Shown one piece after another: positions 11,607-52,462 of a DNA stretch of 64,000 nt; position 1 is the first letter of the stretch; the number at the start of each line of letters is the position of its first letter. The DNA is taken from assembly GCA_030407005.1 (NCBI GenBank), contig JAUDYN010000007.1, positions 2,914,001 through 2,978,000 on the forward strand. The letters run 5' to 3'. Source of the DNA: Desarmillaria ectypa (taxonomy: Eukaryota > Basidiomycota > Agaricomycetes > Agaricales > Physalacriaceae). The notes beneath the pieces are model-generated. The model did not search any database and was not told the origin of the DNA. It saw only the letters and a list, made by a program, of their open reading frames with translations. The translations under genes and the position numbers were made by a program.

Positions 11607-13818
11607 ATGTCTGAAGAGATGCCCACTTCCTGGAAATCGCTGGCATCCTCTGCATCTAGTCGCTTAAAAGGATACATCGCGCAGAAGGACCTCCGGACTC
11701 GGAATATTAACCTTCAACGGCGACTTGGCGTAGATACCGAGAACGGGCAATCTTGGAAGGAGTGGGCTGGCCAGAAGATCAGCAATAAACTGTTATCGAA
11801 CGGCAGCCCAGGTATAGAGAAGATTGCTCTGTTCCCTGGATGGGCGGCGAGGAGATATCTATCCGACAACCATGAGAACGAAGGTGCGAATTCGTATTCT
11901 TCTTCTTTCGGGCACTGATTAAATTACTGGACACTGTTCAGGTCCATTCGAAGTTGACGTCTACATCTCGGGATTTGCTTCCGTTCATAGGTCGCAGGAA
12001 CAAGCAAGTCGGTCTCAGAAAGCCTTTATAAGTCTAGCAAAAAGTGCGGTCAACGCTCTTGCCTGCCTTTCTTGTTGACGGTATCATTAGGTTTTGCCTC
12101 ATTGCCTAAGCTAGACTCAGAAGGTGTGACAGAGGGCTCGTTAGGCCTATCCAGCTCTTCTACGGAAGAATTGCTGGGCACCATCAAGCTACCACCTCGG
12201 CCACAAGAAATCACGGAGGATTTTGAAGTAGAGGCACTCGAGAGACAATTTCAACATCTCAATCAGAGCCAGTCTTCTGTAGATATCTCGTGTCTGCCCT
12301 CACGGTCTTCCGCATACGACGCACAACCTCTCGCTGACCGTGACTCCATAACGAAGCTATCGGGCGACCTTCGCAAGTTTCACGCCAATTTGGAAGCTAG
12401 GCTGCAGCCTTTCTGGTCCTCGGTTCTTCCCGGCCGATTAGTGAACATCTGCCTCTTTCCAAAACCTCTTAATGTAGTGGATGATCCAACGAGCAACGGT
12501 CCTATCGCATCCCATGACATTTCTACGGCGGCAGATGGAAGTTTTCAAATACGGTTCACCGTCAGATGGGAAGATATGTGTCAGCACCCCGGCGCGCTTC
12601 ATATAGCGTTCGGGGAATCTAACATCGAACATGAGCTCATAGTTGCAGCTCGACTTTTACCACCACCGTCATCCCCTAGTACCTCTCCAGATATGGATTT
12701 TGTCGTCCCAAAACCTGTCTTGCCGATATTAACTGCTAGAATCCCTTTGACCCACAGCCCTATACGTGTTATATCGGACATCGATGATACCATCAAACAT
12801 TCGGACGTGCCTGGAGGTGCCCGCAGTGTTTTCCGCAACGTTTTTGTCAAGGATCTGGACGACCTTGTTATCCCTGGAATGGGACAGTGGTATACTAGGA
12901 TGTGGAATAAAGGTGTTCGCTTCCATTACGTGGTACGCATCTACCTACTCGTATGACACCAATGCTCAAAACGCCTCTCTTGCAGTCAAATGGCCCTTTT
13001 GAGTTGTTACCTGTTCTGGGAGATTTTCTTAACATCGCCTACCTACCTCCAGGTATGAGATTATAGTTCTTCTCGGAATGGAATGCTGATTAACCTCAGG
13101 ATCGATAAAACTCAAGTCCTACGCAGGCCGGTCCTTATTCAGTGGCTTACTATCGGCTCCCGCTGCACGTAAACGCAACGCAATTATGGACATTCTAGAT
13201 TCATTTCCCCACTCTCGCTTTATACTCATTGGCGACACCGGCGAGCAAGATATGGAGCTCTATGCAGAGTGAGTATCTCCCAAGAGAGTGAGCATCGGAG
13301 TTAATGGTTACCCTACTTCTAGATTTGCCAGTCAAAGGCCTGAACAGATTCTGGCTGTCTTCATACGACATGCGCATAATGGAGAACCGCTCGAAGATCC
13401 AACGGGATCACACCCTACCGGAGACATCGAGTTGCGCTCTGCGCCCCCAGCGTACGGCTCCGAGTCAGGAACTATGCGTGCTTCTCGGCGTTCGACTTCG
13501 GGAACGTTCCCTATGACGTACGCCGTTCGAACACCTACAACTCCCCACAAAGATTCGAGTCAGCCTAATAGCGACTACTTTGCGCACCCTTTAACTGACG
13601 AACCGGATTCGACCACTGAGAAAGAGCCGTCGGAATCGTACTTCTCGTCAAATCCCCAGACGCCTTCTATGCCTTCTCGTCTGACGGAGGTGGAGAGGAA
13701 GAAAATAGAGCTGCAGATGCGCGTTTATAGTGCGAGAGCGATGATCCCGAAACATATACCTTTTCGCGTATTCAGATCTCCGGAGGATTGTCTGGAGATA
13801 CATCAGGTTTTGTCATAG
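11607..13818 (+). CDS. APP1: App1-type phosphatidate phosphatase
   Basis: Mg2+-dependent phosphatidate phosphatase that dephosphorylates phosphatidic acid to diacylglycerol; yeast App1 acts at cortical actin patches in endocytosis. ATG 11607 (MSEEMPTSWKSLASSASSRL). I read six exons, about 650 residues, introns near 11882-11941, 12044-12091, 12932-12986, 13052-13098 and 13269-13320. The HAD-type catalytic motif is intact: VISDIDDTIKHSDVPGG (DxDDT at about 12777-12791). It is followed by GMGQWYTRMWNKGVRFHYV, then across an intron SNGPFELLPVLGDFL, SIKLKSYAGRSLFSGLL and FILIGDTGEQDMELYA, the conserved C-terminal catalytic block. The long tail is rich in Ser, Pro and Thr with PSTP/PPAY-like runs, plausible SH3 or WW partner sites as in yeast App1 (inference). 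Stop 13816-13818. Confidence 0.92.
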
Positions 13819-14194
13819 TTGTATGTCATGGGTGGTTTGTTTTGTATCGTATATTATCTTTCATTATTTCATGGTTGGATTGGGTTAACGTGCGTCACCG
13901 TGTTGGCAGGGCGCTTGGATTTAACGCTATGGATGGGATAGGAGCCTTCTCCGTTACGACGCCGTCGTCCCCGAGCTGCTTATGTGCCTAGGCCATTTTC
14001 TGTAAGGGACGAGCCTATAATTTGAACCTGAAGAATTGATTACTAGGCCATAGCTATGCATCGTAGATTGTGGACAAATTCGAGACTCCAATTCACCCGT
14101 ACTAGTGGACAGTATTAGTAGTTTCGCGTGGGGCAAAGCATAAGATCCCTGTAAGTCAACTTGGAGGTACCGATCACTTCAATTTTCAGAGATG
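13819..14194. other. App1 3' flank up to duplication boundary
   Basis: No gene seen. The last bases (AGATG at 14190-14194) directly precede sequence matching the LINE tail and recur at the far end of the inserted copy. Confidence 0.5.
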
Positions 14195-14930
14195 GTGAAA
14201 ACACATTGTAAATTAGTACAGAGGGACCGTCCTCCACAAGGAAAATATATCATGCACAAATCGGGTCGTAGATTTTAAAAGGCCATCCAAGAGTCGGTGG
14301 ACAAGAATTTCGGACGAACCCATTCCAAGATAGGAGGAGTGGACGGTATCAAGGAAGGGCGAACGACAGTAAGAGGCGGTGTCGTGAGGATATAAAAAGA
14401 GAATGTGTAATACATCCTCAATGCCATCGTGACACATCCTACATAGACGCCGTTATTGTATCGACGATCTCGTCTTTCCACATTGACTCCACCGCTGTAG
14501 GGCGCTGTAGGGAATGTTGCCGAGCCAGTTCCTTTTGTCCAAGGTCTACAAAGCTCTGCAAGCATCGATGGCGCAGGGGGCGACTTTGGATGGGGACTAG
14601 CGTTCTGAGAAGAGTCGTACGAAGTATCGAAAGGCGAGGACAAGCCTACGATAGCGTATTCGAGTAAATTCGGTCTCTGAGAACAGGATTGCTGCTATGG
14701 AGCGGTTATGTACATGTATCAGCCCACGGATGAAAGCAATCTGAACATTTTCGAGGTGTCGGAGAGTCGCAGGGATGACGACAACTTGCGTGCCATAGGT
14801 GATGACAGAGTCGATGCAGGTACCATGAACAGATATATCAGTACGCGGGTGAACATTATTGCTTAGGTATCGTTCCATTGCCAACCCGTAGGGCTTTCTT
14901 CGCGAGTTGTATTGAGTGAGAGCGAAAGAT
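14195..14930 (-). mobile_element. non-LTR retrotransposon (LINE) relic, C-terminal RT region, left copy
   Basis: Degenerate 3' end of a LINE. On the minus strand it reads LENVQIAFIRGLIHVHNRSI and AILFSETEFTRIRYRRLVLA, typical of the region after the reverse-transcriptase domain in basidiomycete LINEs. It then reads RMCHDGIEDVLHILFLYPHD, the zinc-binding tail, ending at 14213. It is interrupted by frame breaks. Compared with the copy at 46155-47081 it keeps about 190 bp near 14742-14930 that the other lacks, but has lost about 180 bp near 14450. The element stops abruptly at 14195 inside its 3' tail. The missing tail is found at 20569-20750, on the far side of the inserted block. Confidence 0.8.
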
Positions 14931-15335
14931 GTCCATTGTGGTAGAGCAAAAGGCTATTAGACCTAGGAAGCGCGTGTTGTCAGTCCAATCGGAAAAGAGC
15001 TAAACTCTAAGATGTCCATAGGAAATGCCAGAACCCTCTTGTTAGGAATACAAAGCAATGAAGGATACGACATAGCTTTATGCTATTTACTGCAAATTGT
15101 AATATGCAAGTTCAACCCACTCGCCTTGCTTGGCGTACTCTCGAAATTGTTCGGATATTGTTACTTATTCCACAAAGTGTTGAATTATATACGAGAGTAT
15201 ACCTAGACTAGACAAAAAGCGAAACATCGACGATATCAATAGGTACTCATTGGAAAGTAAGCCTTTGGCTGCGTCAACTTGGTGAAAATGAAACATTGTC
15301 ATAAAAATTGTGACCTAAAGCGGGTTTATTTCTTT
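14931..15335. repeat. spacer between LINE and NTPase gene, left copy
   Basis: No gene. It matches 45759-46154 in inverted orientation. Where I compared them base by base, most differences are C/T or G/A transitions. Confidence 0.6.
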
Positions 15336-18300
15336 TTACAGTGAATTCCATCGGTCAATGGCCGCCTCGAGTGCATGAACTACATCCTGTCTCGTCTTCA
15401 GGTCCTTCTCTTCTGGCACATTACGTTGCTCCGAGGGAAGCGACTGCTCATATAGCCGATGAAGCTGCAGCTGAAGCTTCAGCATGCTCATTGATATGCG
15501 GCTTGAGTCTTCAAGATCTTTCTTGTCGACAATGAAGTCAAAATTTTTATAATCGATGTGTGAATCGTTGTTCTGTGCATTGACTTTGATGAGCTGCTCC
15601 ATGTGAGATCGCTTGATGAGTTGAGCCCAGAGTTTACTTCCTGGCATAATGTTGTCCAGAATTGGGCCAACCCAATCCCAGTTGATGGCAGCAAGAGGTG
15701 TAGTAGTTGTTTTGAATGAAGATGCATTCAAGCATTGAATGCTGTGAAAGGCAGAGAAGATACAGAGCACCCCAATGGCATGATGAGATGCCAAGTCTGA
15801 TGACAGGACCTTATCAACTTTATCCGGAAGAGCATCAAGTGCCTTTAGGAATTGTTGGGATGCTGCTGGAAGTCCATCTACCTCTGCTCCCTAAGTCATT
15901 GATAAGAAGCCTGTTAATGATAATCAAGATAGAGACTCACACTGCTGTTTCTATAAACATTTTCTGGGATGACTGACTGCACTGCACTGACAAGATCTCC
16001 ATTGACAATTGTCTTGTCATTCTCTCGAACTTTTGTCTGGCCCAATAGCCAAAAATGTTTACCGCTATCCAACTTCACCAGACAGACAAGATCAGGCCCA
16101 GCTCTTGTGATTGGATAGCAGATGGAATATGGTGCTCCCTGGAATGTGAGCCACTGCAGAAGCTGTGAAGCACTGTCAAGATAGCTGCCTGCTTGGGGAA
16201 TATTTCTAGAGGAATAGGAATATGGGATGGTGTGATATCTCTGTGTTGTGTGATCAAAATGACTGGGAACAACAATCTGAGCCTTCTCATAGGTCCAAGA
16301 TGGTAAGACTGCATTTTCTGGAATGTAAAAATCTAGAACCTGATTGAGAGGAAGGCCAGATTGTAGAGCTCGGAACACAGCATATGCAGAGAACACTTCA
16401 GAGAGATTGTGTTTCAGGGAGATATCAAATGCCTTCTCCATGATATGAGTGTGGAGATATCCTGGCTCATTCTTCTCCAGCCAAGTGATAATAGCCGTTA
16501 ACACAAGTGGCTCATCCGTATGCACACTCCTGGTTATATCCATAAATCTGGAGATTCCAAGCTCGACCAATATAGAATTTTCCACTGGAAGTACAGGTAG
16601 TGGTGTTCCTATTAGCAAACAAGCTGGAAGATTTTCTTTGAGTTTTGAAAACACTCCTAGAGATAGTTAATAACTGAGAGGCCAACAAGATAGAGAAGAA
16701 GCATACCCAATTTTGAAAGACGCTTAACATCAATTCCACGAGATATTTTTGCCTCAATAAAGATATTAGGAGACAATGGTGGCTCTGCTTTAATAAGATC
16801 CTCAGCATCTCCAGGTTCAAATTCATCATCACAGAAGAATTTGATATAGGAATTGAGCACAGCATGTGGGGAGCGGAACCCTGATATAAGCAACAGTTCA
16901 ATAAGGGTAGCCGTGAAGCAAAATCTAAGGACAATCACAGTAAGAAATAATAATGGTATGTAGTTATAATCACAAACCTTCCTCTTGTCCATGTAAAGAC
17001 ACGTGCAAGAAAGTCTGAGAGGCCACCCTGCAAAGCAGGTGGAACAAACTTTCTAATATATGCAGCCTGGCTATCAGCATCTTCAAAAGATCCCATCTCA
17101 GAATGTTGCTCAAACTTTGGTTCACCACCCAGCTTTAATGCCTTTGACCCACTATTTTCCTGAATAATCTGCAGATTTGTGCCTGTCCCTGATAGGAACA
17201 AAAACCAATTATGAAGTGCAAGAGACTTGTGAAGGCATTCAGTGAGTGGTCTCAGGAGGGATCGAGAGGATCTTGATGAATGAGAATGGAATGCGTTAGG
17301 GGCCTGTGTAGCAGGTGCTTGTGCTTCATCTACAATGCAGCACAATTGACGTGAAGAAGTGGATAAGGGGAAAGTCTGGGCCAACAGATTCTTGACATCC
17401 TCGAGAGACTGCCTTAGACTGCGTTCCAAGTAATCATCGGTGGAATCTTTAAGGAGATTGATAATCCCACAAAATATATCCAGCCGAAAGATTTTCGTCT
17501 GATGGATTTGGATTTTTAGCCATGCCAATCGTAGGTTGTCCTCAGAGGAGCCTGGTTGACTCAGATTCAAGTTTAGGAAGTGGGTAAAAACAAATGTGCG
17601 TGCCAGTAGAACTTTAAGGTACTGTCGGCAGGCAATGGCCTCATTTGAATCGAAATCCTCCATGGAGACAGGGTCAGAATTGAAGCCATCATTCTCCTGT
17701 ATCCTGGAAAGAGCCTGTTCAAGGTCTGTTGAACCCAGCTCGTATGAGTCGCGGGTCCCAACAAAGTAGAAACCCCAGTACCGCGCCAACCCTTCCAGAA
17801 GGAGCCGCGACTTCCCAGAACCTGAGGTGTTGATAAGGACGCTACAATGAATAACGTCAGACAGGAGTACAACCGTGATTGCAGTTGTTGCCTTACATAG
17901 ACTTGTTGTGAACATTGAACAATGACTTCAGGTGCTTATCGAACACTTCCTTATTGTAGCAACCCAGCTCGTGCAACAGCAGGCTCGGATGGCCAAGGAC
18001 CTGAGGCAGACAGAGCCTCCTAAAAAAATCACCATGTTCGCCACTGTCACTCGGTCCATCCCATCGCGGGAGATCTTTGTCACCGGTAATCACGTCGAGC
18101 ATCGTTTGACTAAACTTTGACAAATAATTCTGTATGGCGGTCGTTATCACATCGTCCGGCTGCTTAATCGTTGGTGACCCCGTCCTTTCTATGGCATCTA
18201 CGGAAATGATTAGCGCAAGAATCCCAAAGAGAACGGGAACAATTACACATCAGCACCAAATTCTCCCTGTTTAAATAGACATTAGAAATGGGCCATACAA

Positions 18301-18719
18301 TGAACGCAGGCTTGAACAGACCATTTTGGATTCTCAGAAGATCCGATAGCAATAACATCTTTGTATACCGTCTCTGCATGTGAAGGGTTCTGCAAAAGAT
18401 CGAGGTCTTCGATGGGTTTGTACGGCCATTTAGGGTGGCGTTTCTTGTACTGGGTAGCTGCTTGGACTATGATGTAGGCCATCATCCCCAACAGCACCTC
18501 TTTTTCAACTCCGCTCTGTAGAAGGAAATGAATGCCAGGGAATGCCTGGTCGTCGCTGAAAAGTTGTCGAATTTCCAGGCGAACACTTGAGTCGTGTTCT
18601 TCGGTAGAGGCAGAAGCAGTGGAAGCAACGTCCATTCTGGCGTGTTTTGGAGAGGTCGAGGCAACCAGGGTACCACTGCCACCTCGCTTCAAGGCGTTCA
18701 AAGGGTCGGTATTGTCCAT
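15336..18719 (-). CDS. P-loop NTPase with PD-(D/E)XK-like C-terminus (CRN/RHS-like), left copy
   Basis: Inverted copy of the gene at 42375-45758, with the same six-exon layout. ATG 18719-18717, stop 15338-15336. Walker A is NTSGSGKS, the Walker B-like motif is CCIVDEAQ, and LFLSGTGT could be a sensor strand. The later exons encode FTWTRGRFCFTATLIELLL and a C-terminal AGPDLV...LLGQTKVR pattern resembling a PD-(D/E)XK nuclease core with Q for E. Exons 2-5 appear identical to the other copy in all reading frames. Exon 1 carries a cluster of replacements (for example LFSDDQAFPGIHFLLQSGV against IFINDKPFSAFHVLLQRGF) and exon 6 has about eight. Splice sites and frame look intact. The first intron uses a GTATGG donor in both copies. 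Confidence 0.8.
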
Positions 18720-18852
18720 CAGGACGGAGGTGGCGAACTCAGAACGCAACACAGTAACGATTAAACAGGATATGAAAGGCGTATATTGAACAGTTACGAC
18801 AGAGAAAGAGTTGGGAAAGAGGAGACGTATTTTGATTAGTCAGCATGCACAG

Positions 18853-18920
18853 AGATCTGATTATCGGTTACTCAACGTTCCCTTCGGACTATGAGAGTGC
18901 CCCCGAGGACGATGGTGTTT
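18853..18920. other. junction sequence joining NTPase 5' flank to POL1 5' region
   Basis: To the left, sequence matches the NTPase upstream region (counterpart about 42242). To the right, from TGGATGACTGGGCAG, it matches POL1 exon 2 (counterpart about 52201). These 68 bp match neither side at the right locus and I could not place them elsewhere in the window. They include an in-frame stop upstream of the POL1 remnant. Confidence 0.6.
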
Positions 18921-20568
18921 GGATGACTGGGCAGAAGCGGAAGCATACGACTCGGACGAAGACATAGAGCCAGACGGAAAAGGTGCGTGGATTGCTTTGC
19001 GTTCAGTGTTTCGCGTTTGACGCGTGTCTGTACAGCGAAAAAGAAATCGTCCAAGCCGGATACCAAGAAAACCAAAGCTAGACGACTCCCACCATCACCG
19101 ACTCCCATTGCACCAACAATCAGTGCATACCGGCCGAAGGTCTCGAAAGATGAAGAGGACAAGTTCATGGCTTCTCTTTTGGGGGACATGGACGCGGAGC
19201 TCATCCTAGTCATGGACTTCAATTCCTTGTATCCCAGTATCATTCAAGAGTACAACATCGATTTCACTACTGTTGATTCAATTGATAACGAGCATGAGGT
19301 TTGCTTATGCTTTCTTTTACTCCTTGTATTGCTGGCTGACATGCGGCCCTCTGTAGAACGAAGAAGAGCATATCCTGGATCCACCTGGTTCTTCGGTACC
19401 CCAGGGTGTTCTCCCTCGGCTCATTGCCACCCTCGTCAACAGACGGCGACAAGTCAAATCTCTTATGAAGGACAAAACTGCGACGCCTGCGCAGCTGCTC
19501 CAGGTAACATCAGCTTCTGCGTTTTGATTGACTATCTCATTCTGACACATTTGTTTCTAGTATGATATCAAACAGCAGGCCCTCAAGCTTACAGCTAATA
19601 GTATGTACGGCTGTCTAGGCTTCGAGTATTCGAGGTTCTATGCTCGTCCTTTGGCCGCCTTAACAACGTTCAAGGGACGGGAAATTCTGACGCATACGAA
19701 GGAATTGGCAGAGAGCATGCAGCTTGATGTCTGTCTTTGATTCGATCTTTTTCTTATGGTTGACTTAATCTGACAATGTTCAGGTCGTTTACGGTGATAC
19801 TGATTCAGTCTTTGTGAACTCTAACGTCACCGAACTATCGGAAGCGCTGAAAATTGCCGCTGAATTCAAGAAAGCCGTTAATGACCGATACAAGCTGTTG
19901 GAGATCGATTTAGATGGCATATTCCAGCGACTACTGCTTTTACAAAAGAAGAAGTATGCAGCTATCAAGGTCGAGGATGGGACTAGGACATCGACAGAAG
20001 TGAAGGGCCTCGATATGAAGCGTCGAGAGTACTGTGCGCTTTCAAAGAACGTTTCGCAGTAAGTGATGTCATTTCTGTGGCTCGTGCTCAAGCTCATGGT
20101 AATTTTAGGTACGTATTAGAACAAATTCTATCCGGAGAAGCTACCGAAGTCGTTGTGGAACAAATACATGAATATTTGACGACCATCGGGAAGAATGTCA
20201 GGGAGGGCAAGGTCAAACTCGACGATTTTATCATTTTTAAGGTTCGTACTGTGCCTTTCTCGCATCAAGTGCCTCTAACCAATACTCCACAGCGGCTTGG
20301 TAAAAATCCGGAAGAATACCCGAAAGTTCATGGTCTACCACATGTTCAGGTCGCTTTGAAAATGAAGGCGAGGGGAGGGTCGGCAAGGGCAGGAGATGTA
20401 ATCCCTTACATTTTCTGCCTAGCCGAAGGGGAAGAGTCGGTGAAGACTGGCCAGGCGGATCGTGCCAGGCATCCCGACGAACTTCGAAAGGCAGGATCGG
20501 AGCTCAAAATAGGTGAGTTGTGAGCACACTGACGCCTATATGTTATTGACATTTCCAGATTATGAACA
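18921..20568 (+). pseudogene. DNA polymerase alpha (POL1) remnant, internally deleted
   Basis: A partial copy of POL1 from 47223-52462. It begins in exon 2 ([16 protein letters not shown]), without the start codon, and continues [17 protein letters not shown] to SLLGDMDAE. There a deletion matching 49522-51919 (2,398 bp) removes the exonuclease-side half and fuses the stub, in frame, to [18 protein letters not shown]. The palm then follows with motif A DFNSLYPS, motif [10 protein letters not shown] and motif C YGDTDS, through to [15 protein letters not shown]. It ends just after the next splice acceptor at DYE, where a second deletion (about 1.07 kb; 47082-48153) removes the zinc-finger end and joins LINE tail. 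Apart from the stub, the remnant looks identical to functional POL1 in every frame I compared. It is probably not translated. Confidence 0.85.
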
Positions 20569-20750
20569 TTTGTTTTATTAATTGTCGGTGCTCCTGAACG
20601 GAAATGTAACGGCATCCGTACTACATGTGGCTATCTACGAAGTGCACTTTACTGTTAATGAAGCCATGGAGATGTCTAGCTGCTATAGGACCGAACCAAT
20701 CCTATGCTGCCCCGTCACAAGTACTCCTCGCAGCCTCGGCAATAGGATAG
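20569..20750 (-). mobile_element. LINE 3' tail fragment
   Basis: Matches the reverse complement of about 46901-47081, the 3' tail of the right-hand LINE, with scattered mostly transition differences. It completes the tail missing from the element at 14195 and marks the right edge of the inserted block. Confidence 0.75.
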
Positions 20751-21145
20751 ATGATACAAGCTCAGACGTTCAGGAACCTAATACAGGGATGTCTTGGTAC
20801 TGATGTGTCCATGTGAGTCCAAGCATGAATACAAACAAGCGGTCTCCGCCGCCAAAGTGACCCTTCATTCCAGCCTACATACACAGTACGAAAGCAAAAT
20901 ACTGATACAATAGATGCCAATTCCATGATATTCTTCCAACCAAGCCATATATAAAGCATAGTGTTTGTATGTCGATGCATAAGAATAGAGAGCGTAGCGA
21001 GTGTCGTCAATGATAAATTAAGCAATCATTCGGTCAGAGACTCGATGGTAATAAGATAAGGGAGAAAAGGGAAGAGGGGTCGAAAGTTGAGACGGTTGCA
21101 CCAGAGTCTAGTTCGTGATTAGGAACGAGAGGTAAGGGTCAGCCT
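20751..21145. other. intergenic region
   Basis: Unique sequence between the duplication edge and the 3' end of the next gene. No gene seen. Confidence 0.5.
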
Positions 21146-39003: not shown

Positions 39004-40975
39004 CTTCAGTCTTGTGGTGCTTTCATTGTGATAACGGATGGCTTCGAGTTTGTCCGCAGCAGTAAGACGCGTAATCTCAGTTGTCAATAAGTAATGTATG
39101 ATCTAGTACAACTTCAAGTTTATTCACCCACTCCCTAATCTTCGTTACTCGTTTGTCTTCGACTTGGCGTGTTACCATTTCAGCCAAGAAAACAGAGACA
39201 TCTATTATATCATGCATGACATATTGCAATTGACTGTATTCTTTAAGTGATCATGGTTTTGTTACGCTGATGTATGATATTTCGGTTATTATGCTTCAAG
39301 TAAGCGGTAGGGGTTTGACTCCCCTTCAACGTACTTGTATGGCTTGCTGGTCTGTCAGCAGAAGTTCAGCGTTCACTGCTCAGCGCTCAGTCCTGGATCC
39401 GTTATTTACTGTTCACTTAGCACTGTTCAGACTCGTCATTCTTTCTATACGATAATATGACTTGAATTTTCCCAGCAACTATGCTTACTTAAAAAATAGG
39501 GGGGTTACAAAGGGTTTGTCAGACTGGAAGGGAAGGGAAATTTTATTATCCGATTGAAGAGGTGCATAAAATGCTTCAGAATATCAGGGAATGGACTTCA
39601 CTGACCATTCCCAGGCCTAGGGGGCCGGTCTTGAGCTTGAGCGTTTGAATCGATCTGCTGACTAAGACGACAAGCCTAACCCTGATTTTGCTTTCAATCT
39701 TTCTTGTTTACTGTTACTACGTGTACTCTCAGAATTGTCCGGTCGTTTCTGTCATATTTTAGGAAACCAGTTGGATATTCATGATTGCCATGTTTATTTC
39801 TCTTTAGTCTTGTTGTATTTCGGACTGTATCCTAGTACATTGTTGAAAGACCTTTAGTCTTTGGGTTACAAACTCGTGAGGAGTTTGCCCATTTACTTCG
39901 CATATTTATACTAATTTCTACCTATTCTAGTAGTTTCTATCCAATCAATTTCTTACTCAGCATGCCGGAATGCCGGATTGCTCGAACTTTCTCGCATATT
40001 CCGACAAGTCTGAATTGGACTAATGTACTTTCCAGGCAAGCTCTGTGCGCCTTCGATTTGACCCCAACTGAACGTCGAACCTTGTAATACACCTAAAGGT
40101 CGTTCCGTCACCCAGCTCTGGAATATCTGCAGACATAGATGCCGGTGGAGTAATGTTGATTGTGAACGTACGGCAGCCACGAAGGTGAACATCACAACAT
40201 ATGGACCAATACTTCTGCTAATGGCCGTTTCTTGCGCCTGTAATAGTAGTCGTGCTACCGGAAATACGTGTCTCTACAATGCTCCTTTTACATGCCGTAT
40301 TGAGGTTACACCTGGTTAAACACGCGGCCGCATCGGAGCTGCCCAAGGCTTGAACGCGAACGTCCTGAACAAGATTTTCTGGCTCGGCACTATCTCTTGA
40401 TGCAGCATCGAACGATATTGATACCAGCAGCAACAGAGGAGCCATCTGCACGGGGTAGACGCGGCCGTATATTCAGTCTCTTGGACTTCACCGCTTTGAC
40501 GACGTACGGCAACCCATCTTCGAAGAGGCTCGTCTATCTGTACTACGTCGTTGATAAGGACACTAGTTTTGCTTCTTGTTGCATCAGTACTGCTTCAATG
40601 GTCGGCTAGTTGTCCTCTAGACAAACGAACACACTGCTGACTATTCGACACATGGGCGAGATGGCTAGAAAATTCTTCCAGTTCTATTGGCACGCCTTGG
40701 CCCAGGTTCAGGACATGATTGTGCCATCACTATTTCTAAGTTGTCTTAATCACACGAGCGACATGTTCCATTCATGTCTATCTTTCAAGTGTTCAAATCC
40801 AACCTACCTTCCATTACTCTCCTTGCATCGTATTACTACTCTGCTCTGTAGTACGTGTGTTCTCCTTCGACATGTCAGTCACACACCGGTCAATGATCGA
40901 GGCAAGATCGGTGATATAAAACCAACCATGGATTGGGAAAACCAACATTATATATCTTTACCAAGGACCACTACA
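39004..40975. other. intergenic region, possible small secreted ORF
   Basis: On the minus strand a frame from about 40445 starts MAPLLLLVSISFDAASRDSA, signal-peptide-like with three cysteines, ending 40218. No family recognised and coding is doubtful. The rest shows nothing. Confidence 0.3.
40948..40957 (+). promoter_or_regulatory. TATA-like box
   Basis: A TTATATATCT stretch lies about 20-28 bp before the ATG at 40976. This is too close to leave much 5' leader, so its role is uncertain. Confidence 0.3.
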
Positions 40976-41499
40976 ATGGTCTCCTGTTCGGACCTCTCGC
41001 TCACAACGCTTTTCTACACACTCTCCGCCTCTGCATACGTCGCGTCCATTCCCACCTCCGATATCAGCAGGTGGGAAGGATCATCCGTCCTGGAAAACGC
41101 CCTCGCCTATGGTGTCGCCGTTCATACCGACACCGTTGACGTCACTTCGGACGAGGGCTTTCTTCTGGACGACACTCTAGCCTTAGTGGTCACTGACACG
41201 GTCAATGCCATCGTGGACGCCGTTATCCTAGACCCGAAGGATGAAGTGGTATCCCTTGTCGAGCCGGCAGCGTTTACGCCGACTGCGACAGTGGTCATCC
41301 AGAGCCCACAAACCGCAAAGCTGCTCCCAAGGTTGTGCAAGTTGCACCGACCCTAGGGATAGTAATGGTGATGGTACTGTTGACAATCGTTGTAGGCCTG
41401 GTGACCTCTGTGTTCGTGGTCAAGTGGGTGTCCAGGCCATCCTGTGGCTCCTTTGCCTCTACTCCCGTATCCCCGCCAACCGTCTTCCCTCGTTGCTAG
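40976..41499 (+). pseudogene. possible one-pass membrane protein with frame slip
   Basis: The frame from ATG 40976 gives a signal-like LTTLFYTLSASAYVASIP and an acidic/hydrophobic repeat-like body rich in Val, Asp and Thr. It runs on to 41356 in frame. In another frame, from about 41300, KAAPKVVQVAPTLGIVM leads into a strong membrane helix (VMVLLTIVVGLVTSVFVV) with a KW stop-transfer and a stop at 41497-41499. No GT-AG intron of normal length links them. Either it is a decayed gene, a sequence error, or two unrelated frames. Confidence 0.35.
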
Positions 41500-42374
41500 C
41501 TCAAGCCCTTGGGACTGCTTCTTCGATCTTCTTTCCCTCCCTTTTGTTCTGACTAGCCATTATTTATGAGTATATTCATTCTTCGGAGCCTCGACTCCGA
41601 TGTACCTCCTCCCGTCCTCGACTACCTTCTCCTACTTTTCGGTGACTTGTGTGAAGATGTCGTGATCGAAGTCATCATGACGATAGTTCCAACTGTATTT
41701 TCCATGCGATGGTGGCTCAAGGCGAGGTCACGGAGGCGAACCTGTCCACCACAGGTCGTGTAGAGTATTGCGTAGGTTCGCCTTTAGCTTCAGATCGTGA
41801 GATGAGTGTCATATAGCATGTTCTAGTCCTCGGTTTTTCACTGGTATACTTTCAGGTAACGAGCAGTACGGCGTCCCTCCGGTAGGCTTGTGGCGAGGGA
41901 GGACATCGTCGGTCCCACCGATTCAGGCCGCTGGATCAGGTCGCGCAGGCAGGCTATTACCGTTCCGCATCCTCGTCTGGTCTCCGTTTCTTTGTGCTAG
42001 TACCGAAAAAGCGCCATCAGGAAGAAAGCAGCTGCTCTGCGTGGAGAGCACGTCGCTGTATAAGCTTTCATTCTACTAGTTGTATTTTCCATGATTCTAA
42101 CTTTATTTCAGGTGTCTTGTTCTGAATCCACTTGATGCACCAGCCAGCCAGAAGCACTAACGAACGCACGGAGATGACGGGGAAGTCAGTCACGTAGCTA
42201 CTCCGTTGCCGTGTCGGGTTATCAGGGACGATCAGTAGTGCATGCTGATTAATCAGAGACAGCTCTCGTCTCCTCTTTCCCAACTCTTTCTCTGTCATAA
42301 CTGTTCAATATACGCCTTTCATATCCTGTTTAATCGTTACTGTGTTGCCCTCTGAGTTCGCCACCTCTGTCCTG
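41500..42374. other. intergenic region upstream of the NTPase gene
   Basis: No gene seen. The part from about 42242 to 42374 is shared with the left copy (18720-18852, inverted) and presumably holds the NTPase promoter. The shared block begins at the GCATGCTGATTAATC stretch. Confidence 0.5.
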
Positions 42375-45300
42375 ATGGACAATACCGACCCTTTGAACGC
42401 CTTGAAGCGAGGTGGCAGTGGTACCCTGGTTGCCTCGACCTCTCCAAAACACGCCAGAATGGACGTTGCTTCCACTGCTTCTGCCTCTACCGAAGAACAC
42501 GACCCAAGTGTTTGCCTGGAAATTCGACAAATTTTCATCAACGACAAGCCATTCTCTGCCTTTCACGTCCTTCTACAAAGAGGATTTGAAAAAGAGGTGC
42601 TGTTGGGGATGATGGCCTCCATGATAGTCCAAGTAGCTACCCAGTACAAGAAACGCCACCCTAAATGGCCGTACAAACCCATCGAAGACCTCGATCTTTT
42701 GCAGAACCCTTCGCATGCAGAGATGGTATACAAAGATGTTATTGCTATCAGATCTTCTGAGAATCCAAAATGGTCTGTTCAAGCCTGCGTTCGTTGTATG
42801 GCCCATTTCTAATGTCTATTCAAACAGGGAGAATTTGGTGCTGATGTGTAATCGTTCCCATTCTCTTTGGGATTCTTGCGCTAATCATTTCCATAGATGC
42901 CATAGAAAGGACGGGGTCACCAACGATTAAGCAGCCGGACGATGTGATAACGACCGCCATACAGAATTATTTGTCAAAGTTTAGTCAAACGATGCTCGAC
43001 GTGATTACCGGTGACAAAGATCTCCCGCGATGGGATGGACCGAGTGACAGTGGCGAACATGGTGATTTTTTTAGGAGGCTCTGTCTGCCTCAGGTCCTTG
43101 GCCATCCGAGCCTGCTGTTGCACGAGCTGGGTTGCTACAATAAGGAAGTGTTCGATAAGCACCTGAAGTCATTGTTCAATGTTCACAACAAGTCTATGTA
43201 AGGCAACAACTGCAATCACGGTTGTACTCCTGTCTGACGTTATTCATTGTAGCGTCCTTATCAACACCTCAGGTTCTGGGAAGTCGCGGCTCCTTCTGGA
43301 AGGGTTGGCGCGGTACTGGGGTTTCTACTTTGTTGGGACCCGCGACTCATACGAGCTGGGTTCAACAGACCTTGAACAGGCTCTTTCCAGGATACAGGAG
43401 AATGATGGCTTCAATTCTGACCCTGTCTCCATGGAGGATTTCGATTCAAATGAGGCCATTGCCTGCCGACAGTACCTTAAAGTTCTACTGGCACGCACAT
43501 TTGTTTTTACCCACTTCCTAAACTTGAATCTGAGTCAACCAGGCTCCTCTGAGGACAACCTACGATTGGCATGGCTAAAAATCCAAATCCATCAGACGAA
43601 AATCTTTCGGCTGGATATATTTTGTGGGATTATCAATCTCCTTAAAGATTCCACCGATGATTACTTGGAACGCAGTCTAAGGCAGTCTCTCGAGGATGTC
43701 AAGAATCTGTTGGCCCAGACTTTCCCCTTATCCACTTCTTCACGTCAATTGTGCTGCATTGTAGATGAAGCACAAGCACCTGCTACACAGGCCCCTAACG
43801 CATTCCATTCTCATTCATCAAGATCCTCTCGATCCCTCCTGAGACCACTCACTGAATGCCTTCACAAGTCTCTTGCACTTCATAATTGGTTTTTGTTCCT
43901 ATCAGGGACAGGCACAAATCTGCAGATTATTCAGGAAAATAGTGGGTCAAAGGCATTAAAGCTGGGTGGTGAACCAAAGTTTGAGCAACATTCTGAGATG
44001 GGATCTTTTGAAGATGCTGATAGCCAGGCTGCATATATTAGAAAGTTTGTTCCACCTGCTTTGCAGGGTGGCCTCTCAGACTTTCTTGCACGTGTCTTTA
44101 CATGGACAAGAGGAAGGTTTGTGATTATAACTACATACCATTATTATTTCTTACTGTGATTGTCCTTAGATTTTGCTTCACGGCTACCCTTATTGAACTG
44201 TTGCTTATATCAGGGTTCCGCTCCCCACATGCTGTGCTCAATTCCTATATCAAATTCTTCTGTGATGATGAATTTGAACCTGGAGATGCTGAGGATCTTA
44301 TTAAAGCAGAGCCACCATTGTCTCCTAATATCTTTATTGAGGCAAAAATATCTCGTGGAATTGATGTTAAGCGTCTTTCAAAATTGGGTATGCTTCTTCT
44401 CTATCTTGTTGGCCTCTCAGTTATTAACTATCTCTAGGAGTGTTTTCAAAACTCAAAGAAAATCTTCCAGCTTGTTTGCTAATAGGAACACCACTACCTG
44501 TACTTCCAGTGGAAAATTCTATATTGGTCGAGCTTGGAATCTCCAGATTTATGGATATAACCAGGAGTGTGCATACGGATGAGCCACTTGTGTTAACGGC
44601 TATTATCACTTGGCTGGAGAAGAATGAGCCAGGATATCTCCACACTCATATCATGGAGAAGGCATTTGATATCTCCCTGAAACACAATCTCTCTGAAGTG
44701 TTCTCTGCATATGCTGTGTTCCGAGCTCTACAATCTGGCCTTCCTCTCAATCAGGTTCTAGATTTTTACATTCCAGAAAATGCAGTCTTACCATCTTGGA
44801 CCTATGAGAAGGCTCAGATTGTTGTTCCCAGTCATTTTGATCACACAACACAGAGATATCACACCATCCCATATTCCTATTCCTCTAGAAATATTCCCCA
44901 AGCAGGCAGCTATCTTGACAGTGCTTCACAGCTTCTGCAGTGGCTCACATTCCAGGGAGCACCATATTCCATCTGCTATCCAATCACAAGAGCTGGGCCT
45001 GATCTTGTCTGTCTGGTGAAGTTGGATAGCGGTAAACATTTTTGGCTATTGGGCCAGACAAAAGTTCGAGAGAATGACAAGACAATTGTCAATGGAGATC
45101 TTGTCAGTGCAGTGCAGTCAGTCATCCCAGAAAATGTTTATAGAAACAGCAGTGTGAGTCTCTATCTTGATTATCATTAACAGGCTTCTTATCAATGACT
45201 CAGGGAGCAGAGGTAGATGGACTTCCAGCAGCATCCCAACAATTCCTAAAGGCACTTGATGCTCTTCCGGATAAAGTTGATAAGGTCCTGTCATCAGACT

Positions 45301-45758
45301 TGGCATCTCATCATGCCATTGGGGTGCTCTGTATCTTCCCTGCCTTTCACAGCATTCAATGCTTGAATGCATCTTCATTCAAAACGACTACTACACCTCT
45401 TGCTGCTATCAACTGGGATCGGGTCGGCCCAATTCTGGACAACATTATGCTAGGAAGTAAACTCTGGGCTCAACTCATCAAGCGATCTCACATGGAGAGG
45501 CTCATCAAAGTCAATGCACAGAACGACGATTCACACATCGATTATAAAAATGTTGACTTCATTGTCGACAAGAAAGATCTTGAAGACTCAAGCCGCATAT
45601 CAACGAGCATGCTGAAGCTTCAGCTGCAGCTTCATCGGCTATATGAGCAGTCGCTTCCCTCGGAGCAACATAATGTGCCAGAAGAGAAGGACCTGAAGAC
45701 GAGACAGGATGTAGTTCATGCACTCGAGGCGGCCATTGACCGATGGAATTCACTGTAA
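42375..45758 (+). CDS. P-loop NTPase with PD-(D/E)XK-like C-terminus (CRN/RHS-like), right copy
   Basis: Six exons: 42375-42795, 42897-43197, 43253-44116, 44170-44387, 44438-45153 and 45204-45758. They total 3,075 nt, so 1,024 residues with no internal stop. Walker A NTSGSGKS falls at about residues 245-252, Walker B-like IVDEAQ with D412/E413, and a putative sensor strand LFLSGTGT follows. The family block WTRGRFCFTATLIELLL crosses an intron. The C-terminal third has AGPDLV (D790) and LLGQTKVR (Q808, K810), resembling a PD-(D/E)XK core with Q in the E position. This architecture is like the NTPase-plus-REase proteins known as Crinkler/RHS-type effectors or transposon-associated genes. No N-terminal LxLFLAK or signal peptide is seen. 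Role inferred: a mobile or selfish nuclease gene. Confidence 0.8.
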
Positions 45759-46154
45759 AAAGAAATAGACCCGCTTTAGGTCACAATTTTTATGACAATG
45801 TTTCATTTTCACCAAGTTGACGCAGCCAAAGACTTACTTTCCGATGAGTACCTATTGATATCGTCGATGTTTCGCTTTTTGTCTAGTCTAGGTATACTCT
45901 CGTATATAATTCAACACTTTGTGGAATAAGTAACAATATCCGAACAATTTCGAGAGCACGCCAAGCAAGGCGAGTAGGTTGAACTTGCGTATTATAATTT
46001 GCAGCAAATAGCATAAAGCTATGTCGTATCCTTCATTGCTTTGTATTCCTAACAAGAGGGTTCTGGCATTTCCTATGGACATCTTAGAGTTTAGCTCTTT
46101 CCCGATTGGACGGACAACACGCGCTTCCTAGGTGTAATAGCCTTTTGCTCCGCC
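45759..46154. repeat. spacer between NTPase gene and LINE, right copy
   Basis: Matches 14931-15335 inverted. No gene seen. Confidence 0.6.
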
Positions 46155-47081: not shown

Positions 47082-47222
47082 CTTCCTTCCTGTCGGAGAT
47101 TCCTATCACGGGTGCTATTAACCAATATTCTGCTCCTGATACGATACCACGCTTAAAAACTAAAACTACAACATGATATATCTCTAAATACAACAAACGG
47201 ACTATTGCAAATATAGGAAAAC

Positions 47223-50200
47223 CTATATTTTCATCATACAAAACAGCGTACCCATTTCCACCCACCGACGGCCACATTGATCTAAGTATTTATCCACACA
47301 ATTCGACATGGCCTTCAGAAGCTCTGCCTGTTGCGAAACAAGAACAGAAACTTCCTCTGTAACAGATGATAAACCCAGCAACACCAAAGAAGTAACATTG
47401 CATACCTTCGGAGCTCGTTCCCCTCGAGGCTTTCATTGCACGTTCTCCATCGAAAAGGGAGGAAAAGTAGCGAAGTTGGTCATACAGTTGGGCATCAGAA
47501 TACTGTGAATACCATTAATGCCAAGCAATCGTTCATACGACGACAACGAACCTCAAAAGCGACTTTTCCTTCACATCCCTTTTTGAGACACTTTCGACCA
47601 TCTACCCCCATCATGCGTGTCCGATTACCGCAAGTAACATCATTGCACACGGTCCAGCCTTCGTAATACGTCGAGATGTGTCCCCTCATCTGGACTTCAA
47701 GTTGCAGCTGTAGACTTCCTGACGGTATCGGTTTCTGACAGGTGGGACTGAGACACGCAGTACCATGAGGATGAATGATTGACGCCTAGGCACTCATATC
47801 AGTAGCTGGACATCGTAACACATCGATCATACGTACTTCGCGATCATTGAGCGGGGCGAATGCAAGTTCTCCTTTACAGGCAGGACACCGCACAATGAAG
47901 GGAGTGGCATCCTTGAACCGCTCTGCGTCTGATGTCCGCGAATCCAGAGAAGCGAATGCGCGTTCCTCTGAGAAGCTGCTAGATATAGCAGTTCGATAGC
48001 GTGAAGGATCCAGACCTGAGGATGAGTGAGCATCGTTCGCATCAGACAAAGACAATAAATTTACCGAGGCACTCTGCTAATCGTGTTCGATCCGTTCCTT
48101 CGATAGGATCACATAATCGTTCTATGGGGGGAAGAATCTGCTGAGAAAGATATTGTTCATAATCTGGAAATGTCAATAACATATAGGCGTCAGTGTGCTC
48201 ACAACTCACCTATTTTGAGCTCCGATCCTGCCTTTCGAAGTTCGTCGGGATGCCTGGCACGATCCGCCTGGCCAGTCTTCACCGACTCTTCCCCTTCGGC
48301 TAGGCAGAAAATGTAAGGGATTACATCTCCTGCCCTTGCCGACCCTCCCCTCGCCTTCATTTTCAAAGCGACCTGAACATGTGGTAGACCATGAACTTTC
48401 GGGTATTCTTCCGGATTTTTACCAAGCCGCTGTGGAGTATTGGTTAGAGGCACTTGATGCGAGAAAGGCACAGTACGAACCTTAAAAATGATAAAATCGT
48501 CGAGTTTGACCTTGCCCTCCCTGACATTCTTCCCGATGGTCGTCAAATATTCATGTATTTGTTCCACAACGACTTCGGTAGCTTCTCCGGATAGAATTTG
48601 TTCTAATACGTACCTAAAATTACCATGAGCTTGAGCACGAGCCACAGAAATGACATCACTTACTGCGAAACGTTCTTTGAAAGCGCACAGTACTCTCGAC
48701 GCTTCATATCGAGGCCCTTCACTTCTGTCGATGTCCTAGTCCCATCCTCGACCTTGATAGCTGCATACTTCTTCTTTTGTAAAAGCAGTAGTCGCTGGAA
48801 TATGCCATCTAAATCGATCTCCAACAGCTTGTATCGGTCATTAACGGCTTTCTTGAATTCAGCGGCAATTTTCAGCGCTTCCGATAGTTCGGTGACGTTA
48901 GAGTTCACAAAGACTGAATCAGTATCACCGTAAACGACCTGAACATTGTCAGATTAAGTCAACCATAAGAAAAAGATCGAATCAAAGACAGACATCAAGC
49001 TGCATGCTCTCTGCCAATTCCTTCGTATGCGTCAGAATTTCCCGTCCCTTGAACGTTGTTAAGGCGGCCAAAGGACGAGCATAGAACCTCGAATACTCGA
49101 AGCCTAGACAGCCGTACATACTATTAGCTGTAAGCTTGAGGGCCTGCTGTTTGATATCATACTAGAAACAAATGTGTCAGAATGAGATAGTCAATCAAAA
49201 CGCAGAAGCTGATGTTACCTGGAGCAGCTGCGCAGGCGTCGCAGTTTTGTCCTTCATAAGAGATTTGACTTGTCGCCGTCTGTTGACGAGGGTGGCAATG
49301 AGCCGAGGGAGAACACCCTGGGGTACCGAAGAACCAGGTGGATCCAGGATATGCTCTTCTTCGTTCTACAGAGGGCCGCATGTCAGCCAGCAATACAAGG
49401 AGTAAAAGAAAGCATAAGCAAACCTCATGCTCGTTATCAATTGAATCAACAGTAGTGAAATCGATGTTGTACTCTTGAATGATACTGGGATACAAGGAAT
49501 TGAAGTCCATAACTAGGATGAACTTGTCCCAAAGGCCGCGTTTTGGCTCGAAAACTAAACCACCCTTGTACTTGTCCCTTTTCTGTTTGTTAGATTTCCC
49601 GTCGTCATCGGCTTCCTCGTTCTCGGACTTCTCCGGCTTGCTCTTCTTACCCCAAGATTTATCGGGACATATGTACTTGAGCCTATGGAACTCGTGCAAT
49701 AGAATGTACTCGTTACGTTCGGCACGTCCACCGTTCAGAGTCTTGTTCCTGTGGTCGATGTGAAAAAACGACAGAGTTAAGAATGATGGCGAGCATACCA
49801 AGAATTTCCCGCAAGGTTAGTTAGTTGTTTCGTTAAAGGCAGGATCTGTACTTTGGAGGCAATGGCCATATGATAATGCGCGTCCAGTTCGCAGTGTTGA
49901 ACAAAGGTCATAAGCCTCTCGGGGCCGCTGACGGTACTGTCAAGGTAGCTTGCAGTATCGTCGGGATCGATGTCCTGTCGGTCACTTCTCAGGTGCGTCT
50001 TACACATCTCGGTTAGGGACCAGGTCGTTGAAGCGATCATGCTCTACAAGCAAATTGTTTAGAAAAATCGGATAGTCAAAGATTTAGTGATAAACATAAA
50101 CCTTTGCACCATCGCTAGCGAGATCACAAAGCATGCGTCCAGAAAGGAACTTGATGTTCGACCCTTGTTTCCCGATGTTGGGCCATTTAGATCGCCTGAA

Positions 50201-52462
50201 CCGTCCCAGTCTGGACCAATGGTCGACTTTCAGACCTTTTATACGATGTAAAAGGACATCTAAGGAAGAGCCCAAAAACTCGTGGCCAACGATAACGTCA
50301 GGGTCAGCTTTATGCAATGCCACTGTGAGAGAGCATGTGAATAAGATGCATTTTTTCAGTGACCGAATGTGTATACCCAACAGACTGCTGAGGAGCATGC
50401 GTTCATTTTTTGCAGTCAATATATGACCTTTGCCGTGCGCTTTTGCCCGAGTTTCGAAATTTGGCGGGAAACGGTCTAGAGGGCGCACAAAAGTCTGAAC
50501 GGTACATGGCAACTGCTCCGGCGGTTTCGGATCATCGATGGCCACTGTTCCTCGTCAGCAAAGCAAGCGTCACTGAAAACGAAGACTGACTGTTATGCCA
50601 TATCCTCGCAGTGGCGCAGACAACTTCTCTCATATTCTCAGCGTGATTAACAATTGTTCGAACGCTTAAGCTCATGACTGTCAATGGTGGAGTGTCCTTC
50701 GGTACGCTAGGATCAGAATCTGAGAAGGGATTGAAATCCTTTGGGTCTGACACTGTGACCTCTAGTTTGCACCAGGATATCTGGAAACATATATAAGATG
50801 GAAGGTCAAAGGAGAAGAAAAATATGCCCACCCCCTGATTGTCAATCTTTGGGTTCTTGATTTGAAGCCAGCACGGACCCATAATCTTCCTCTTGAGTAC
50901 GAGGAGCTCGAAAGCACTAGTATTGGTCCCAAAGATCTTTGAAATGTTGGGGCTGTTGAGCGTACTTGGAAGTTGTGGTTCTGACACTGTTGTTGAGCGA
51001 TTGATGTGACTTCGAATAATGAAAAGAGACCTACGATCAAAACCATATATCACTTTCATCCACTGACGCTCCTCCCTAGGCACGTCCGTCTCACCAAATG
51101 CATACTTTCGTTTCACAAACTTGCCTTTGAAGCTCTTGATACTGACCTTCTTCCGAATCGCATCGAAATCGCGGTATACATCCTGCAGTGAGGGAACTTC
51201 GTCGGTCTCATACATGTTGTTTTCTTCGTCAACTTCCACGCGTTTATCTCGTGGTAGAACGAAGATATTGCGCTCCAGCCCTTCAACCGTGACACAGCAA
51301 GACACCCACATACCCGTTGCCTTGTCCTTTAGCTTGCCGACAAAGTATAATTTTCCTTCATGTTCAAGGTAGTCGAGCCAGAAGAAACGCAAGGAACCAT
51401 CTGGTTCTAAGGCTGCGATTCTGCTGCTACTGGCGACGGATGAAGAAGATTCCAAAGCACCCAGCGGGTCAGATTCAGCGACGGCAAGAGAATCATAAAC
51501 CGAAAGCCATGATGGTAGGGCATCGACTTCCTTTTTCTTCGGTAGGGATGCAACCACGGGCTCCTTCTTGACCGGTTTGAAATCATCATCATCATCAAGG
51601 TCATCGTCCATTTGATTAAATGCGGCCATATCGAAATCGAAGTCATCCGGAATGTCCAAGTGCGAGTCCGACTTCATGTTCATCCGAGAAAGACGTTGAG
51701 TGGCCGGTGTCATCCCCGCGACGTTGGTCTTGGCTTTTTTCTTGGGGCTGAAAATTAGATCGTCACTCGGAATATCAACGAAAGGGCTATCCATGGGACC
51801 ATCTGAGGAAGTGTCGTCGTAGGGTGTATGGCTACGATAGGGTATGGGAGAAGAGTCATTGCTATAGTCATAAGAAGGAGATGTTTTGCGTTTCCGCGAT
51901 TTAGGAACGGCGGGTATGGGCTCCGCGTCCATGTCCCCCAAAAGAGAAGCCATGAAACTGTCCTCTTCATCTTTCGAGACCTTCGGCCGGTATGCACTGA
52001 TTGTTGGTGCAATGGGAGTCGGTGATGGTGGGAGTCGTCTAGCTTTGGTTTTCTTGGTATCCGGCTTGGACGATTTCTTTTTCGCTGTACAGACACGCGT
52101 CAAACGCGAAACACTGAACGCAAAGCAATCCATGCACCTTTTCTGTCTATCTCTATGTCTTCGTCCGAGTCGTATGCTTCCGCTTCTGCCCAGTCATCCA
52201 TGCCATTATCCATGTAACCGTCCACGCCATCATCGACAACAAAGTCGTCTCTCTGTAAACGCCCCTTGACGATGTTACTGTATTGGTCTTCTGATACTTC
52301 ATCGTAAATTTGAACGTCTTCTTCCTATCAGTGTTTGGTGTTCAACACGTCTGTATTGCGGTCGTGGACTTGACTCACCTTGAATTTACGCGTTCCGCCC
52401 GCCCTGGCACGTTTCAGTTCAGCCAAAGCCTCTAGTTTGGACTTTTTACCGCGTGAGGACAT
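47223..52462 (-). CDS. POL1: DNA polymerase alpha catalytic subunit
   Basis: Catalytic subunit of DNA polymerase alpha-primase, which extends RNA primers at origins and on the lagging strand. ATG 52462 ([20 protein letters not shown]), stop 47225-47223. The N-terminal region is acidic and Ser/Lys-rich. The exonuclose-like domain region includes [19 protein letters not shown]. The B-family polymerase core carries motif [18 protein letters not shown], motif [21 protein letters not shown] and motif [11 protein letters not shown], then [11 protein letters not shown]. The C-terminal zinc modules are [13 protein letters not shown] and [20 protein letters not shown] with CLKKGCEG. These bind the B subunit. 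The last exon encodes [18 protein letters not shown] and ends CMMKI. More than fifteen introns, and frame is kept at the C-terminal joints I checked. Confidence 0.93.

What the first reader, a model, noticed from the sequence alone, without database searches (positions are those of the whole stretch)
14195..20750. Circularly permuted inverted duplication of a 10-kb locus containing POL1
Seen: the left block carries the same three units as 42.24-52.20 kb, in inverted orientation and rotated order, and its outer ends fall at adjacent positions within the LINE tail (about 46,900/46,901). The NTPase and POL1 5' ends, 10 kb apart on the right, are fused on the left. The length budget (9,960 - 2,398 - 1,072 + 68 = 6,558 bp) matches the block of about 6,555 bp. 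A rotated order with contiguous ends is what a reintegrated extrachromosomal circle would leave. Simple tandem or inverted duplication does not produce it in one step. An origin from a circle is inference.
Basis: partly seen in the sequence, partly recalled or inferred. Interest (0 to 1): 0.92.

Follow-up and report, generated by a model that had tools for sequence, protein, structure and literature searches.

The report
Gene block duplicated through DNA circles
In a mushroom genome, a gene block next to the DNA polymerase alpha gene was copied to two nearby places with its order rotated, each time opened at a different point, as expected if the block passed through a DNA circle.

Summary
Confirmed and extended. 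The left block (L, 14195-20750) is an inverted, rotated copy of the right locus (R, 42238-52200); its ends abut at 46900/46901 of R. The window lies on contig C30 of a 40.6-Mb genome, Desarmillaria ectypa by its proteins. A third copy (T), 31 kb beyond the window, is rotated too but opened elsewhere, at 46638/46639. Two rotations with contiguous ends and different openings are hard to explain without a circular intermediate. R, with the complete POL1 (DNA polymerase alpha) gene, is the donor. T keeps the circle-closing junction (POL1 5' part joined to upstream repeat F), and T's F begins where R's F ends, at a ~660-bp, 6-bp-microhomology deletion in R: a donor scar. L shares T's POL1 deletion and carries 56 bp resembling C31. 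L and R are identical over 2,307 and 1,357 bp where T differs at 59 and 23 sites: later gene conversion. The kind of event is known from yeast, cattle and humans; my searches listed no filamentous-fungus case, and a screen of 306 rice-blast genomes found none.

The parts
14195..20750 (-). L: rotated copy of R (whole block)
14195..14449 (-). L: LINE tail 46646-46900; its outer end is the opening point
14450..14963 (-). L: LINE 46130-46463 including the 165-bp piece (14765-14929) absent from R
15336..18713 (-). L: NTPase gene, open over 1,024 codons in the model used
18864..18919 (-). L: 56-bp filler, 54 of 56 bases as C31:1873578-1873633
18920..19204 (+). L: POL1 5' fragment (51916-52200 of R)
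19201..20568 (+). L: POL1 fragment (48154-49521 of R); 1 difference in 1,368 bp
20569..20750 (-). L: LINE 3' end (46901-47081 of R); outer end is the opening point
40609..42243 (+). R: F1 repeat, cut off at GTGCAT (42238-42243), the donor scar
42375..45758 (+). R: NTPase gene, six exons, open over 1,024 codons
46130..47091 (+). R: LINE remnant (5' edge approximate); T opened at 46638/46639, L at 46900/46901
47223..52462 (-). R: POL1, DNA polymerase alpha catalytic subunit, native copy (exons read by eye, N-terminal part not modelled in full)
52353..52358 (.). R: donor position of the closing junction seen in T (POL1 side)

Best explanation
A segment from the F1 repeat through the NTPase gene, a LINE remnant and most of POL1 was released from R and closed into a circle (POL1 position 52358 joined to F with one extra or changed base). 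This circle, or a circle re-formed from the first insertion, opened within the LINE at 46638/46639 to give T and at 46900/46901 to give L, both by non-homologous joining and both inverted relative to R. POL1 lost 2,394 bp before T and L parted. L then lost the closing junction, which was patched with 56 bp like C31, plus 1,072 bp of POL1. Later, sequence exchange between L and R erased their differences in the NTPase core and the POL1 core. Shown: both rotations, contiguity of both end pairs, the closing junction, the shared deletion, the filler match, the identity tracts, and that R's F1 ends where T's F starts. Inferred: the circle itself, the order T then L, the direction of exchange, and that one break made both the circle end and the donor scar.
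For: Rotated order with contiguous ends in L and T. Closing junction in T; R's F1 ends in GTGCAT and T's F starts at (AT)CAGG, which are contiguous in copy F5 (GTGCATCAGG) and nearly so in F2 and F3. L and T share the 49521|51916 junction and the 165-bp LINE piece. L's LINE deletion ends 2-7 bp from T's opening. No LINE at the target flanks: L flanks 1 match each, T flanks 1 and 2 matches, the extra one a 75% match of ~135 bp on C3. T-R differences in POL1 exons between 47330 and 49521 are 8 synonymous, 18 nonsynonymous and 1 stop of 27, as expected for an unconstrained T copy; only R holds POL1 whole.
Against: Both insertions lie within 45 kb of the donor, about 5e-6 if random in the genome, so a freely diffusing circle is unlikely. 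Sequence does not group L with T: of 9 three-way segments L-T is the largest distance in 5, tied with R-T in 3, and smaller than R-L in 1. Divergence is patchy, for instance R-T 0.7% (4 of 557) in the NTPase 3' coding part but 9.7% (36 of 371) just after it, and exchange has not been mapped fully. T retains pieces L lost and the reverse, so neither is a plain copy of the other. No reads or other strains were available.
Confidence: 0.83

Rival explanations
1. A local tandem array of the unit existed, and pieces of it were left or moved as T and L; any one-unit piece of an array is a rotation.
For: All three copies lie within 89 kb on one chromosome; a tandem junction would look like T's closing junction.
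Against: Both copies are one unit long to within about 1 bp, with different openings; array pieces would have arbitrary lengths. No array was found: POL1 sequence matched only at R, T and L.
Confidence: 0.09
2. Replicative template switching (FoSTeS/MMBIR) assembled T and L piece by piece without a closed circle.
For: 56-bp filler resembling C31, microhomologies of 2-6 bp, several internal deletions, and local placement.
Against: Switching gives no reason for the two ends of each copy to be adjacent in R. It may nevertheless have opened or inserted the circle.
Confidence: 0.06
3. Assembly artefact: collapsed or mis-joined copies, or two haplotypes merged.
For: Long stretches identical between L and R could come from collapsed reads.
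Against: Each copy has its own flanks, deletions and private differences; no N in the 124-kb stretch; 32 contigs for 40.6 Mb. T's POL1 differences look like real drift.
Confidence: 0.02

Closest known systems
Circular-intermediate segmental duplications of the human genome (Chicote et al. 2020, PMC7450558; abstract, Results and Discussion read)
   Same: A-B/C-D to B-A/D-C order change; closing junctions that are flush, have 1-bp insertions or 2-bp microhomology; no homology at insertion; most breakpoints in unrelated repeats; one pair only 0.09 Mb apart.
   Different: Here two copies with different openings come from one donor, and the donor has a deletion scar at the closing point; the unit is about 10 kb instead of 22-3918 kb.
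Region B of wine yeasts (Galeote et al. 2011, PMC3053389; passages read)
   Same: Circularly permuted copies of one block at several sites with little or no similarity at the breakpoints, read as circle insertions.
   Different: There the block is a 17-kb foreign segment from Zygosaccharomyces bailii with a working replication origin, on several chromosomes; here it is native and local, and no origin was tested.
Cattle colour-sidedness, serial translocation via circles (Durkin et al. 2012; not read, known from its title and citing passages)
   Same: Successive rotated copies made through circular intermediates.
   Different: Different organism, and a phenotype is known there; none is known here.
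lcr16a/SVA circle insertion in apes (PMC9132208; passages read)
   Same: Circle-mediated duplication with a retroelement at the opening point.
   Different: There insertion used recombination with a retroelement at the target; here the target flanks show no LINE match.

Membership tests
Circular-intermediate (A-B/C-D to B-A/D-C) duplication | Rotated block order with both pieces in the same relative orientation | tested here: met
   L and T
Circular-intermediate (A-B/C-D to B-A/D-C) duplication | Ends of the derived copy adjacent in the donor (opening point B/C) | tested here: met
   L at 46900/46901, T at 46638/46639
Circular-intermediate (A-B/C-D to B-A/D-C) duplication | Donor end points joined inside the derived copy (closing point A/D) | tested here: met
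   T: POL1 52358, one base, F. In L this junction is gone, replaced by filler
Circular-intermediate (A-B/C-D to B-A/D-C) duplication | Only microhomology or small indels at junctions, no extended homology with the target | tested here: met
   the donor scar has 6 bp, more than the 1-2 bp of the human cases
Circular-intermediate (A-B/C-D to B-A/D-C) duplication | Empty target site in a relative | not testable with these tools
   no second strain, relative genome or haplotype was held
Circular-intermediate (A-B/C-D to B-A/D-C) duplication | Circle molecule observed | not testable with these tools
   needs outward PCR or circle sequencing
Circle insertion by recombination between retroelement copies (lcr16a/SVA type) | Retroelement sequence at both target flanks | tested here: not met
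   no LINE locus among the matches of 4 flanks searched (750-900 bp each)

The most novel reading that the evidence does not exclude
This locus preserves both products of one break. At a single point in F1 one product became the end of a DNA circle, and the other was rescued by a 6-bp microhomology joining that left a ~660-bp donor scar, as if the broken chromatid re-entered its sister. The circle then reinserted in two steps in cis: the first insertion (T) was re-excised near its own ends, and that circle reopened 262 bp further along in the same LINE to make L.
Probability: 0.3. Interest if true: 0.8.

Novelty: new member of a known kind. Interest (0 to 1): 0.62.

Why it matters
Circle reinsertion is usually inferred from a single rotated copy. 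Here one donor, two openings, a closing junction and a donor scar can be read at base resolution within 89 kb, so models of how chromosomal circles form and return become testable. It would also place the process in a mushroom: my paper searches (titles and abstract starts, 12 of 19 papers listed) showed no described case in a filamentous fungus or basidiomycete, and a screen of 306 Magnaporthe oryzae genomes reported none (PMC9694575, passages). It shows how fragments of an essential gene and a fast-changing NTPase gene can spread locally.

Tried and rejected
Simple inverted or tandem duplication: rejected because the order is rotated and both copies are one unit long. Insertion by LINE-LINE recombination: not supported, no LINE in the target flanks. 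Retrocopy of spliced RNA: rejected because introns are kept in the NTPase and POL1 copies. CpG decay as the sole cause of uneven divergence: rejected, non-CpG divergence is uneven too. Direction of the L-R exchange: with D. tabescens P0003 as outgroup, 41 T-unique residues gave 22 with R/L ancestral, 5 with T ancestral, 2 matching neither and 12 without data; this does not fix the direction. R to L is favoured for POL1 because L is an unconstrained fragment without a private change there. NTPase in Pfam: no family at E 0.001 for the R protein; at E 1 only two sub-threshold hits, in the D. tabescens relative. A paper search for Crinkler-type basidiomycete effectors gave 0 papers. In one search the L row was misaligned over 46901-48153, so its L counts there were dropped; one search replaced them for 46901-47081 (L lacks 47082-48153). 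The first NTPase splice models had a wrong first intron, corrected.

Full report
Observation. Comparing the window with itself gives six inverted matches between 14191-20754 (L) and 42238-52200 (R), and one unrelated 104-bp repeat. Read in R's orientation, L runs 46901-47081, 48154-49521, 51916-52200, 69 bp of other sequence, 42238-46463, ~46646-46900. This is R rotated, with its outer ends at neighbouring bases 46900/46901. The flanks carry CATC at both edges, which could be a 4-bp target duplication. The two L flanks searched (895 and 750 bp) match only themselves in the genome.

Identity of the parts. The POL1 reading holds: a spliced C-terminal part (562 aa) matches DNA polymerase alpha catalytic subunits at E down to 4e-147, ahead of archaeal B-family polymerases (2e-45) and polymerase delta (2e-37). 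In R the gene can be read from 52462 to about 47223; I chose exons by eye and did not model the N-terminal part in full. The NTPase gene is open over 1,024 codons in R and L; T has three stops. Eight relatives were found among 7,990 scored candidates: two named Desarmillaria ectypa on a contig as long as C30 (3,534,863 bases), one at 71% in D. tabescens, five at 24-29% in other basidiomycetes. Invariant SGSGK, DE.Q and GPD...Q residues in a 7-protein alignment suggest a P-loop NTPase with a possible nuclease-like part; resemblance to Crinkler-type proteins is recalled, not tested. Two LINE copies elsewhere (L048, L049) align straight through 46900/46901, so 46901-47091 is the LINE's own 3' end.

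Third copy. The genome has 40,588,909 bases in 32 contigs and the window is C30:2914001-2978000. A copy, T, lies at C30:3008977-3017202, minus strand. In R's orientation its order is LINE from 46639 with the 3' end, POL1 to 49524, POL1 51916-52040 and 52243-52358, an F piece, NTPase, LINE to 46639. T is therefore also rotated, opened at 46638/46639, with one base of overlap; it lacks about 120 bp of LINE near that end. POL1 sequence matched only at R, L and T; the other matches of that search fall in the LINE 3' end.

Closing junction and donor scar. F is a repeat that lies directly upstream of the NTPase in T and occurs at several other places on C30. In T, POL1 ...GTATTG is followed by one base and then ATCAGG of F. 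In R, F1 ends ...GTGCAT and runs on as the NTPase upstream sequence GTGCATGCTGATT: a 6-bp microhomology, with about 660 bp missing compared with T. In copy F5 the two ends are contiguous (GTGCATCAGG), in F2 and F3 nearly so. The part of F that R lacks thus begins where the part that T carries begins. I read this as the donor end of the circle (point A) and its repair scar. T's F piece and R's F1 do not overlap, so identity cannot be compared; adjacency is the evidence.

How L relates to T. L and T share the POL1 deletion junction 49521|51916 and the 165-bp LINE piece, which is LINE by its 70% match to copies on C2. L's LINE deletion ends 2-7 bp from T's opening point, which fits re-excision of T near its own ends; within 6 bp the chance is about 0.4-3.5%. 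A common circle feeding both sites remains possible, and T lacks LINE and POL1 pieces that L keeps, so L does not come from T as it stands now. L lost the closing junction; in its place are 56 bp matching C31 at 54 of 56 bases, inside a frame with an HETGH metalloprotease-like motif, and 14 bp of the sequence upstream of the NTPase as in T.

Sequence history. L and R have no difference in 42894-45200, where T differs at 59 sites, and none in 48154-49510, where T differs at 23. At the rate next to these tracts about 88 and 30 differences would be expected. I read this as gene conversion between inverted copies 21 kb apart. Outside the tracts, in the NTPase-LINE half, private differences number 55 in L, 63 in T and 17 in R. 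L-T is the largest distance in 5 of 9 three-way segments, tied with R-T in 3, and smaller than R-L in 1, so L and T share little private history and parted early, if they shared a circle. T-R differences in POL1 exons (8 synonymous, 18 nonsynonymous, 1 stop of 27) match the neutral expectation (30%, 67%, 3%); introns have 14 more and there are 2 indel positions.

Mechanism. A circle with one closing and two openings explains all end points. Both openings fall in the ~1.1-kb LINE (about 1-2% by chance), and both insertions lie within 45 kb of R (about 5e-6 if random). This argues for a circle kept near its source, or a local repair event, rather than a roaming eccDNA. Small junction changes and a filler fit end joining and template switching, as discussed for human cases (PMC7450558).

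What is known. The order change and the closing and opening junctions meet the definition of Chicote et al. Wine-yeast region B is the fungal precedent (PMC3053389, passages). A pipeline run on 306 Magnaporthe oryzae genomes found no such translocation (PMC9694575, passages). My searches for further fungal cases listed none; they cover an open-licence library and I saw titles and abstract starts only, 12 of 19 papers. Seven papers mention D. ectypa (listing only).

Verdict. The finding is real, and its interpretation is supported and strengthened. It is a new member of a known kind of event, unusually well preserved.

Noticed in passing
40609-42242, and C30 2.87-3.11 Mb (loci L020, L021, L024, L051): An F repeat family, about 67-78% alike over the longer matches, occurs at several places, some upstream of NTPase-type genes or remnants; coding capacity unclear.
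   Followed up: partly
L050 49-2288 and 5962-8201 (C2:1915900-1924100): Two 2,240-bp inverted copies, 99.96% identical, each holding a LINE 3' end, about 3.7 kb apart.
   Followed up: no
L022 (T copy): The deposited 957-aa gene model P0001 matches T with 1 mismatch and 67 gap positions over 1,024 aligned; the translated T copy has three in-frame stops, so a broken copy appears annotated as a gene.
   Followed up: partly
42504-42634: Dense cluster of mostly amino-acid-changing differences between L and R near the NTPase N-terminus: patch conversion or fast evolution.
   Followed up: no
45759-46130: T differs from R by 9.7% here but by 0.7% in the preceding 557 bp; unexplained patchiness.
   Followed up: no
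11994-12953: Frame with a partial APP1 phosphatidate phosphatase domain near the L insertion.
   Followed up: no
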